A stretch of 64,000 bases of DNA from Blattabacterium cuenoti. Its GTDB lineage: Bacteria > Bacteroidota > Bacteroidia > Flavobacteriales > Blattabacteriaceae. The notes under the pieces are model-generated. The model was not told where the DNA came from and did no database searches. It saw only the letters and a program-made list of their open reading frames with translations. The position numbers and the translations under genes are program-made. Each line of letters begins with the position of its first letter. Position 1 is the stretch's first letter. The DNA lies in the NCBI RefSeq assembly GCF_014251555.1, contig NZ_CP059190.1, positions 11,673 to 75,672 on the forward strand. Direction: 5' to 3'. Shown one piece after another: positions 44,679 to 47,542 of the stretch.

Positions 44679-45872
44679 ATGATAACAAAGGTCAAAGTCC
44701 CTTCGCCAGGAGAATCAATAACGGAAGTAGAGATTTCAACATGGTTTGTTAAAGATGGTGATTATGTTTCTAAAGGTCAAACAATAGCAGAAATAGATTC
44801 AGATAAGGCTACTTTAGAAATTTCTGCAGAAGAGAATGGGGTGATAAACTTAATGGTAAAAAAAGGAGAAAAAATACAAGTTGGAGATGTTTTATGCCTT
44901 ATCGATACTTCTAAAGAATGCAAAAAAGAATTTCATCAAAATAAAAATGATGAAAAAGAGTTTCATTCCGTAAATGCGAAAATTCTTTCTCCAGCTTCAA
45001 AAAAAATTTTAAAAGAAAAGAATATTCCTATAGAATCTGTTCAAGGGACAGGTAAAGATGGAAGAATTACAAAAGCAGATTGTGTTTTTATTGAAAATCA
45101 AACTTTTTCATCGTCTGTAGAGAGATCTATTACAATATATAGATCAAAAACAAGAACACTTCTTTCTTCTCTAAGAAGAAAGCTTGCTGAAAGATTAGTA
45201 TCTATAAAAAATGAAACGGCTTCACTAACTACATTCAATGAAGTTGATATGCAAGAAGTTTTTCTTATAAGAAAAAAATATAAAGAAATTTTTCAAGAAA
45301 GACATGGAGTACATTTAGGTTTCATGTCTTTTTTTACTCTTTCTTGTGTTAGAGCATTGAAAATGTATCCAGATGTTAATGCTATGATTAGTGGAGAAGA
45401 AAAAATAAATTTTGAATATTGTGACATTAGTATCGCTATATCTGGCCCTAAAGGGTTAATGGTTCCTGTCATACGAAATGCGGAACATTTATCATTTCGT
45501 GGAATAGAACAGGAAATCAATAAATTATCAACACGCATTCAAAATGGAACAATATCCATAGATGAAATGACAGGAGGAACTTTTACCATTACTAATGGCG
45601 GAGTTTTTGGATCCATGTTATCTACTCCAATTATAAATCCACCACAAAGTGCCATATTGGGAATGCATAAAATTATGGAAAGACCTGTAGCGATTAATGG
45701 ATCTGTTGAAATACGTCCTATTATGTATTTAGCTTTATCTTACGATCATAGAATAATCGATGGACGGGAATCTGTTGGATTTTTAAAAGCTGTCAAAGAA
45801 TCTATAGAAAATCCAATAAAATTTTTAATGAGAGGAAGTGAAAAAAACATTCATAAAATATTAGAATTATAA
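44679..45872 (+). CDS. sucB: Dihydrolipoyllysine succinyltransferase, E2 of 2-oxoglutarate dehydrogenase
   Basis: A 397-residue E2. A lipoyl domain with lipoylated Lys43 in [10 protein letters not shown], a peripheral subunit-binding domain ([32 protein letters not shown], near 105-135) and the catalytic acyltransferase domain ending [11 protein letters not shown] with His357. The order and linkers are normal. It follows sucA and likely shares its transcript. ATG at 44679. Confidence 0.97.
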
Positions 45873-45888
45873 AAAAAAATCAAATGGT

Positions 45889-46997
45889 ATGAAAAATATT
45901 TTTCTTGTTTTTTTTTCTCTTGTTATTTTGTTTTTTTCAGAAGGAATCAATAATCCGGTTATCACAAAAAAAAAAGAAGATCAAACATATAACTCTACAG
46001 CTTCCATTCATATAATTTTTATGTTGCCTTTGTTTTTTAATTTCGTCAAAGAAGAAAAAATAAATCAAGAAAGTAAAAGATTGAGTGTTAATGCTTTATA
46101 TTTTTATCTTGGAGCTAAAAGTGCTATTGATTTTCTTTTATTTAAAAAAAAAAAATAACTTTTCAAGTTTTTGATACAAAAAATGAAAAAAAGAGGATAA
46201 CAAATTTTATCCATTCATATAATTTATCCAATACTCATGCTATTATAGGTCCTTTTTTTCGTTCTTCTTTAGAAGAAATTGCTAAAAATAACAAAAATAC
46301 GCCTATTATTTCTCCACTGACTGCTTCTGATTCTTTAAATGTTTATCCAAATGTTATTCAAGCCGAAACGAAAGATGTTTATCTTGTAGAGCCTATTTTA
46401 GAAGAAATAAAATTTATTTATCAAAAAAATAAAATAAAAACTTTGTATTTGCTAGGTGAGAATCCATCTAAAAAAATGATAAGTTTTATAAGAAAAAAGC
46501 TATTGCAATGGAATATTCATTTTCAAATTTATTATTTTAGAAATAATTTTGTTCATATCAGTCAACATCTTCCTTTTTTTGCTATTTTCTTAGGAGGAAA
46601 TTCTTTCCTAGGAAAAGAGTTTATTGATTTTATTAATAAAAATGAAAAAATAATCCCTTTTGGAGTAGGTTATCATAATATTTATTATAAAAATATTTCC
46701 TTATTCAGAAAATATAAATTTCTATTCACAACAAAATATCATTTAAATAAAAACGATGAAAATAAAAGGGAAATGTTTTCTTTTATGAAAAGTAAATTTG
46801 TAAATCACTTAAATAAATACCAATTATTGGGATTTGATTTAACTTATGACATATTAGAAAAACTTTTTGAAAACAAAAATTTATTTAAAACAATAGACCA
46901 AAAATCTTTTTCAGGATTAGTCAGAAAATATAAATATCATAAAATATCTGATAAAGGAGGATATATAAATAAGGGTTTGTGGGTTATACGTTTTTAA
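45889..46997 (+). pseudogene. Frameshifted periplasmic-binding-fold (type 1) protein, split at a 12-A tract
   Basis: Two frames make one protein. The first (45889-46158) encodes a signal peptide (KNIFLVFFSLVILFFSEG) and IHIIFMLPLFFNF...SVNALYFYLGAKSAIDF, and ends KKKK-TAA within an A tract (46144-46155). The second, in the -1 frame, continues ITFQVFDTKNEKKR, then HAIIGPFFRSSLEEIAKNN, TPIISPLTASDS and LGFDLTYDILEKL to GGYINKGLWVIRF. These are features of Bacteroidota LysM/Peripla_BP proteins; the N-terminal LysM domains of that family are absent here. One more A (or two fewer) restores a single frame of about 369 residues. It is either a pseudogene or a gene rescued by slippage on the A tract. 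The 3' end overlaps the next gene by 4 bases. Confidence 0.75.
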
Positions 46998-47542
46998 TTT
47001 CTAATGTAAGGATTTTGTCTGTTTCCAATATTCATTTTTTTCATTTGCATTTTTATAATTTGAATTTGATCATGTAACAATCCAGAAATATCCGTTTTTT
47101 TTGCTTCCAAGAGTAAAAGATCAGCTCTCTTTTTATCTCCTTTTGATAAAGAGGCTATTGCAAGGTTTAATTTTGCAATGGCTATGTTTTGTTTAAATTT
47201 AAGTCCAAAATCTAAAGCCTTCTGCATATAATTTTCTGATTGAAGTATATTCTTTTCTGAATACAAAATTCCATTTAAGAAATAATAATAAGCTATTTGA
47301 TTTTTAGTAAGTTGTAATTCAGGGTTTTTGACATATTCTAAATACTTTTTTAATCCCTTCATATCTTTTTTACGTATTTTTAAAAAAGCCAATAATAAAA
47401 ATTCATTTCTAAAAATAAAAAAAATAGGAATCAAACTTAATAAAATTAGAATACTTCCATAAAAATAATTCTCCTTAAAAAGGAGAAAAATAGATCCCAA
47501 AAAAATTAATAAAAATAATATTACTTTCGAATATTTACTCAT
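46994..47542 (-). CDS. Small membrane-anchored TPR-like protein
   Basis: A 182-residue protein with two N-terminal membrane helices (about 7-24 and 28-48) and a helical-repeat domain: YYYFLNGILYSEKNILQSENYMQKALDFGLK and IAIAKLNLAIASLSKGDKKRADLLLLEAKK read as TPR units. Function unknown; similar small proteins occur in Flavobacteriales. It ends in a 4-base convergent overlap with the frameshifted gene and begins 11 bp after the esterase on the same strand. ATG at 47542. Confidence 0.75.
   Translation of the reverse strand: MSKYSKVILFLLIFLGSIFLLFKENYFYGSILILLSLIPIFFIFRNEFLLLAFLKIRKKDMKGLKKYLEYVKNPELQLTKNQIAYYYFLNGILYSEKNILQSENYMQKALDFGLKFKQNIAIAKLNLAIASLSKGDKKRADLLLLEAKKTDISGLLHDQIQIIKMQMKKMNIGNRQNPYIRN

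What the first reader, a model, noticed from the sequence alone, without database searches (positions are those of the whole stretch)
45889..46997. One gene in two frames across a 12-A tract: pseudogene or slippage-rescued
Signal peptide and N-terminal part end at KKKK-TAA inside A12 (46144-46155); the rest of the binding-fold protein continues in the -1 frame with no other disabling change for about 280 codons. A long open downstream frame suggests the break is very recent or that transcriptional slippage on the A tract makes some correct message, as reported for AT-rich insect endosymbionts. Other A10-A11 runs in this window (gcvP, alaS) are in frame.
Basis: partly seen in the sequence, partly recalled or inferred. 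Interest (0 to 1): 0.7.

Follow-up and report, generated by a model that had tools for sequence, protein, structure and literature searches.

The report
Poly-A frameshift gene in cockroach symbiont
In Blattabacterium, the bacterial partner of cockroaches, a gene for a probable binding protein is split into two reading frames at a run of 12 A's, and because housekeeping genes of the same genus carry the same kind of split in dozens of species without decaying, the cell most likely reads through such splits when it copies DNA into RNA.

Summary
At 46144-46155 an A12 tract ends an 89-codon signal-peptide frame at TAA (46156-46158), and the same protein continues for about 280 codons in the -1 frame with no other lesion. 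The genome is a Blattabacterium. Of 49 same-genus genomes, 12 have the gene as one intact frame (368-386 aa), 31 have lost it, 4 have eroded remnants, and a second, non-sister lineage (G002) has the identical A12+TAA break with both halves open. The protein is a type I periplasmic-binding-fold protein that lost the LysM repeats of its free-living homologues. The informative result lies outside the coordinates: nadD is out of frame at a conserved A10-A11 in 37/48 genomes, a ComEB-type dCMP deaminase at A10-A11 in 33/49, and topA in 13/46. The nadD downstream frames carry no stops (about 54 expected if neutral) and omega is about 0.36. So this genus tolerates poly-A frameshifts, and the known explanation (transcriptional slippage, shown in Buchnera and Blochmannia) fits, including the bias toward tracts one A short. 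For the window gene itself, partial rescue is favoured (no faster than intact sisters), but a young pseudogene is not excluded because the gene is dispensable. No transcript or protein data were available.

The parts
45889..46158 (+). Upstream frame: signal peptide plus first strand/helix of the binding domain, ends KKKK-TAA (89 aa)
   Evidence: aligned with 12 intact orthologues
45966..45975 (+). A10 tract in frame (ITKKKED)
46144..46155 (+). A12 tract, one A short of the frame kept by intact orthologues (G070 has A13 in frame)
46156..46158 (+). TAA stop that ends the upstream frame
46155..46997 (+). Downstream frame (-1), rest of the type I periplasmic-binding domain, 280 codons after the tract plus stop
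44679..45872 (+). sucB, upstream neighbour, used with sucA for synteny and species tree
46994..47542 (-). Tetratricopeptide-like gene (182 aa; assignment from its look, no family hit), downstream convergent neighbour, conserved in all 49 genomes

Best explanation
The A12 tract is a real DNA-level frameshift in a dispensable gene for an exported type I periplasmic-binding-fold protein (the LysM-less descendant of the flavobacterial LysM + PBP1 protein). RNA polymerase slips on the run, so a minority of transcripts carry one extra A and encode the full-length protein, while the rest give a useless 89-aa stub holding only the first strand and helix of the fold. The genus tolerates this state, and tract length drifts in and out of frame at A>=10 runs in nadD, the dCMP deaminase gene and topA. 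Shown: the break, intact orthologues, the second independent break, the genus-wide pattern and purifying selection on broken nadD. Inferred: slippage as the mechanism (known from Buchnera and Blochmannia), its direction, and that this gene's protein is still made and useful.
For: Both halves intact with no other lesion. Same A12+TAA state, both halves open, in G002, which lies in a different well-supported clade. On the window genome's branch the downstream part shows 9 synonymous and 14 non-synonymous changes (35 expected if neutral) and no stop (3.6 expected); distances to G069 equal those of intact sisters. nadD: 37/48 out of frame, all at A>=10 (37 of 37) against 4 of 11 in-frame copies, P=4e-6; no stop in any downstream frame of 142-155 codons; nine independent broken pairs give omega about 0.36 with 54 stops expected and none seen. 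dCMP deaminase: 31/49 one A short, 2 others out. topA: 13/46 out. Most out-of-frame copies are one A short (29:8, 31:2, 11:2, 2:0), as expected if insertions dominate transcriptional slippage: in Buchnera 151 of 157 insertions but only 16 deletions fell in homopolymers (PMC5574713). 12-50% of transcripts corrected at such runs in other endosymbionts (PMC5009743).
Against: No RNA or protein data. The gene is deleted in 31 and eroded in 4 of 49 genomes, so inactivation would be tolerated. Codon ML gives omega 0.42 on the G000 branch against 0.21 elsewhere and does not reject omega=1 (2dlnL about 3.3). The eroded copy G026 has a similar S/N ratio in its open part, so the selection test has little power here. 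[quoted passage not shown]
Confidence: 0.6

Rival explanations
1. Young pseudogene: replication slippage at the longest A run was the first inactivating event in a dispensable gene; any corrected transcripts are incidental and the gene will erode and be deleted as in most relatives.
For: 31 deletions and 4 eroded copies among 49 genomes; A12 is the gene's likely mutational hotspot, which also explains why G002 broke at the same place; omega on the branch not distinguishable from 1.
Against: No second lesion and no rate acceleration relative to intact sisters; two lineages caught in this state; housekeeping genes in the same genome carry the same kind of break.
Confidence: 0.25
2. Assembly or sequencing error in homopolymer length, or a within-host mixture of tract lengths of which the assembly reports one.
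For: This assembly has N gaps, one straight after an A run of over 100 bases in a gene resembling miaA, and a 90-bp local duplication between A runs in dnaN; in G069 (length equal to strain Bge) all four genes are in frame; for the dCMP deaminase gene two-contig assemblies are more often in frame (P=0.04).
Against: The same assembly calls A12, A13 and A14 tracts in frame in other genes; nadD and topA frame states follow the tree (P 0.0005-0.02 for three states, 0.001-0.01 for in/out); half of the nadD breaks are at A10; the same genes are hit over and over.
Confidence: 0.12
3. -1 ribosomal frameshifting on the A run (A AAA AAA/AAG type slippery heptamer) rather than transcriptional slippage makes the full-length protein.
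For: Most out-of-frame copies need a -1 shift; in the dCMP deaminase gene the zero frame ends A-AAA-AAG-TAG, a dnaX-like slippery heptamer followed by a stop.
Against: No Shine-Dalgarno-like stimulator upstream and no strong downstream fold (window z -1.75, deaminase z +0.2); the other out-of-frame phase also persists (nadD in 8, topA in 2, deaminase in 2 genomes), which a -1 ribosomal shift cannot rescue.
Confidence: 0.15

Closest known systems
Poly(A) frameshifts rescued by transcriptional slippage in Buchnera and Blochmannia (Tamas et al. 2008; Wernegreen et al. 2010; Blochmannia vafer, PMC3017870)
   Same: AT-rich insect endosymbiont, single indel in a long A run, rest of gene open, same break in independent lineages, interrupted tracts in in-frame relatives, housekeeping genes involved
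   Different: Different phylum (Bacteroidota, Blattabacterium); breaks retained in far more lineages (nadD 37/48, dCMP deaminase 33/49); no cDNA evidence here; the window gene is dispensable
Type I periplasmic binding proteins (LivJ/LivK; LpoA C-terminal domain)
   Same: Predicted fold: Z 20.6 to a branched-chain amino-acid binding protein, Z 17.5 at rmsd 4.0 to LpoA; PF13458 hit in the free-living homologue
   Different: No Pfam hit in the Blattabacterium protein itself; LysM repeats of the flavobacterial homologues are gone; ligand unknown
Ordinary endosymbiont pseudogene
   Same: Frameshift at a mutational hotspot in a gene lost by most relatives
   Different: No further disabling change, no rate increase over intact sisters

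Membership tests
Slippage-rescued poly-A frameshift gene | One indel in a homopolymer of 9 or more A/T, no other disabling change | tested here: met
   A12, both halves open and colinear with intact orthologues
Slippage-rescued poly-A frameshift gene | Coding constraint continues after the break | tested here: inconclusive
   Window gene: no stops (P=0.027 for break at base of branch), dN/dS like intact sisters, but omega=1 not rejected. Clearly met for nadD of the same genus
Slippage-rescued poly-A frameshift gene | Break retained across or recurring in lineages | tested here: met
   Same state in G002, a non-sister
Slippage-rescued poly-A frameshift gene | Transcripts heterogeneous in A length | not testable with these tools
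   No RNA data
Slippage-rescued poly-A frameshift gene | Full-length protein made | not testable with these tools
   No proteomic data
Programmed -1 ribosomal frameshift | Slippery heptamer in the zero frame | tested here: met
   A AAA AAA TAA
Programmed -1 ribosomal frameshift | Stimulatory upstream SD-like site or downstream structure | tested here: inconclusive
   No SD-like site; weak fold, z -1.75
Established pseudogene | Multiple disabling mutations | tested here: not met
   None besides the tract; contrast G026 and G012
Type I periplasmic binding fold | Two-lobe alternating alpha/beta fold | tested here: met
   AlphaFold model of the intact orthologue (pLDDT 67, pTM 0.64), 282-305 residues aligned at Z 17-21
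Type I periplasmic binding fold | Pfam profile match | tested here: not met
   No hit for the Blattabacterium orthologue; PF13458 and LysM in the free-living homologue

The most novel reading that the evidence does not exclude
Some of the genus-wide out-of-frame tracts, above all the near-invariant TGT-A11-GTAG in the dCMP deaminase gene (30 of 49 genomes at A11, across the whole tree), are not tolerated accidents but a kept, programmed frameshift that sets a low, constant level of the enzyme in Blattabacterium; the window gene would then be a recent entrant to a genus that decodes A runs probabilistically as a rule.
Probability: 0.15. Interest if true: 0.75.

Novelty: new member of a known kind. 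Interest (0 to 1): 0.55.

Why it matters
Automated annotation would call this gene, and nadD, topA and the dCMP deaminase gene, pseudogenes in many Blattabacterium genomes and so mis-state the symbiont's metabolism. The same site seen in 49 genomes gives a natural experiment on how far frame errors at homopolymers are invisible to selection, how the in-frame state is lost and regained, and whether insertion-biased slippage shapes which errors persist. Within the papers searched no such report exists for this genus, and it makes the question of how endosymbionts survive homopolymer decay directly testable by cDNA sequencing.

Tried and rejected
Pfam and NCBIfam give no name to the protein; a PDB sequence search gave only chance matches. 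The genome-contig scan with the downstream half found nothing; the nadD scan found four named Blattabacterium cuenoti strains. Branch-specific codon models were too weak, and G002's own branch cannot be isolated because no intact relative exists in its clade. The dnaN break in this genome lies in a 90-bp near-perfect duplication, is not shared with its sisters and may be an assembly artefact, so it is not used as evidence. G027 topA appears compensated by a nearby indel and is counted in frame. Tamas 2008 and Wernegreen 2010 (MBE) are not held and are cited through papers that cite them.

Full report
WHAT IS THERE. The window is 64 kb of a 638,736-base, 26% GC genome. Downstream of sucA-sucB lies an ATG frame 45889-46158 with a signal-peptide-like start; it runs into A12 (46144-46155) and stops at TAA 46156-46158. 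The -1 frame is open for 283 codons to 46997. No other lesion is present.

RELATIVES. All 49 same-genus genomes keep sucB and the convergent downstream gene. Between them, 12 have one intact gene (longest open frames 374-388 codons, 368-386 aa from the first ATG), 31 have nothing, 4 have remnants, and two (the window genome and G002) have the A12+TAA break with both halves open. In the intact genes the A run is mostly interrupted (A9GA4, A6CA6 and similar) or, in G070, an uninterrupted A13 in frame. On a sucA+sucB tree the window genome is sister to the intact G011+G062, inside a clade of 24 (SH-aLRT 98), while G002 is in another clade of 14 (100): two independent breaks by parsimony.

WHAT IT ENCODES. 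No Pfam or NCBIfam family matches the Blattabacterium protein, but a homologue in a free-living relative of the same order is a 644-aa protein with three LysM stretches and PF13458, periplasmic binding protein. A model of the intact orthologue (pLDDT 67, pTM 0.64) matches type I periplasmic binding proteins (Z 20.6; LpoA C-terminal domain Z 17.5, rmsd 4.0) over residues 42-371. So Blattabacterium kept the signal peptide and the binding domain and lost the LysM repeats. The 89-aa stub holds only the first strand and helix and should not fold.

IS THE GENE STILL UNDER SELECTION? Downstream of the tract, dN/dS between the window genome and intact G011 is 0.44, between intact G011 and G062 0.42, and distances to G069 are alike. 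On the window branch I count 9 synonymous and 14 non-synonymous changes; neutrality predicts 35 non-synonymous changes and 3.6 stops, none seen (P=0.027 if the break is as old as the branch). A codon model gives omega 0.42 against 0.21 background, but omega=1 is not rejected. So an old, unrescued break is unlikely; a young one is not excluded. The open part of the eroded copy G026 has a similar S/N ratio to G002, so the test has limited power.

THE SAME THING IN CONSERVED GENES. A survey of 47 A/T>=11 runs in this genome shows most coding runs in frame, including A12-A14, and several genes broken in the same way: nadD (A11), a ComEB-type dCMP deaminase (A11), topA (A12), dnaN (A13, with a 90-bp duplication). 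Identities were checked for the first three (the deaminase scores below the ComEB cut-off, so its exact name is a best guess). Across the genus nadD is out of frame at the same A10-A11 in 37 of 48 genomes (29 one A short, 8 in the other phase), all with A>=10, against 4 of 11 in-frame copies (P=4e-6). No downstream frame has a stop. In nine independent pairs sharing a broken state there are 118 synonymous and 181 non-synonymous differences (507 expected if neutral, omega about 0.36), and 54 stops are expected, none seen. The dCMP deaminase gene is one A short in 31 of 49 genomes (30 of them at A11, mostly TGT-A11-GTAG), otherwise out of frame in 2, in frame with A12 in 9 and with short or interrupted runs in 7. 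topA is out of frame in 13 of 46. nadD and topA states follow the tree better than shuffled labels (P 0.0005-0.02 for three states), as inherited characters do; the deaminase states do not (P about 0.2). At least 26 in/out changes are needed over the three genes.

MECHANISM. A gene that stays constrained while out of frame must be read through. Transcriptional slippage on A runs is documented in insect endosymbionts, with 12-50% corrected transcripts (PMC5009743), and frameshifts in A runs occur in several genes of every Blochmannia compared (PMC3017870; PMC4389277). In Buchnera, homopolymer slippage by RNA polymerase is strongly insertion-biased and rises exponentially with run length (PMC5574713). 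That predicts an excess of tracts one A short, as seen (29:8, 31:2, 11:2 and 2:0, counted per genome, not per event); a deletion bias in replication would predict the same. Ribosomal -1 shifting also fits this excess, but not the 12 copies in the other phase, and no stimulator was found. No held paper reports this for Blattabacterium; the Bge paper lists one pseudogene, the RNase P protein gene, and a 2018 paper lists pseudogenes such as metG, gltX, atpG and dnaN without discussing frame rescue.

ERROR AS AN EXPLANATION. This assembly has N gaps beside an A run of over 100, G069 is in frame at all four genes, and for the deaminase two-contig assemblies are more often in frame (P=0.04). Against error: A12-A14 tracts called in frame elsewhere, repeated hits to the same genes, inherited states, and breaks at A10. 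I rate it at about 0.12 for this site.

VERDICT. A real poly-A frameshift in a dispensable gene, most likely partly rescued by slippage, in a genus where such frameshifts are common and long-lived in conserved genes.

Noticed in passing
G000:C1:330847 (L157); 48 genomes, L201-L248: nadD is out of frame at a conserved A10-A11 in 37 of 48 same-genus genomes yet stays constrained.
   Followed up: yes
G000:C1:143456 (L097, L270); L270-L318: ComEB-type dCMP deaminase gene carries TGT-A11-GTAG, one A short, in 31 of 49 genomes (30 at A11); zero frame reads A-AAA-AAG-TAG.
   Followed up: partly
G000:C1:363287 (L151); L171-L200, L250-L265: topA is out of frame at A10-A12 near codon 60 in 13 of 46 genomes.
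   Followed up: yes
G000:C1:607847-607950 (L169): dnaN of this genome is broken by a 90-bp near-perfect tandem duplication between A11 and A13 runs; sisters are intact, so perhaps an assembly artefact. G064 and G002 dnaN also look broken.
   Followed up: partly
G000:C1:463241 (L155:1542-1660): A run of over 100 A's followed by a stretch of N inside a gene that resembles miaA: a scaffold gap artefact.
   Followed up: no
G071, L307: The deaminase gene there has TTAGT in place of TTGT just before an A10 run, giving two stops; local indel or sequencing error.
   Followed up: no
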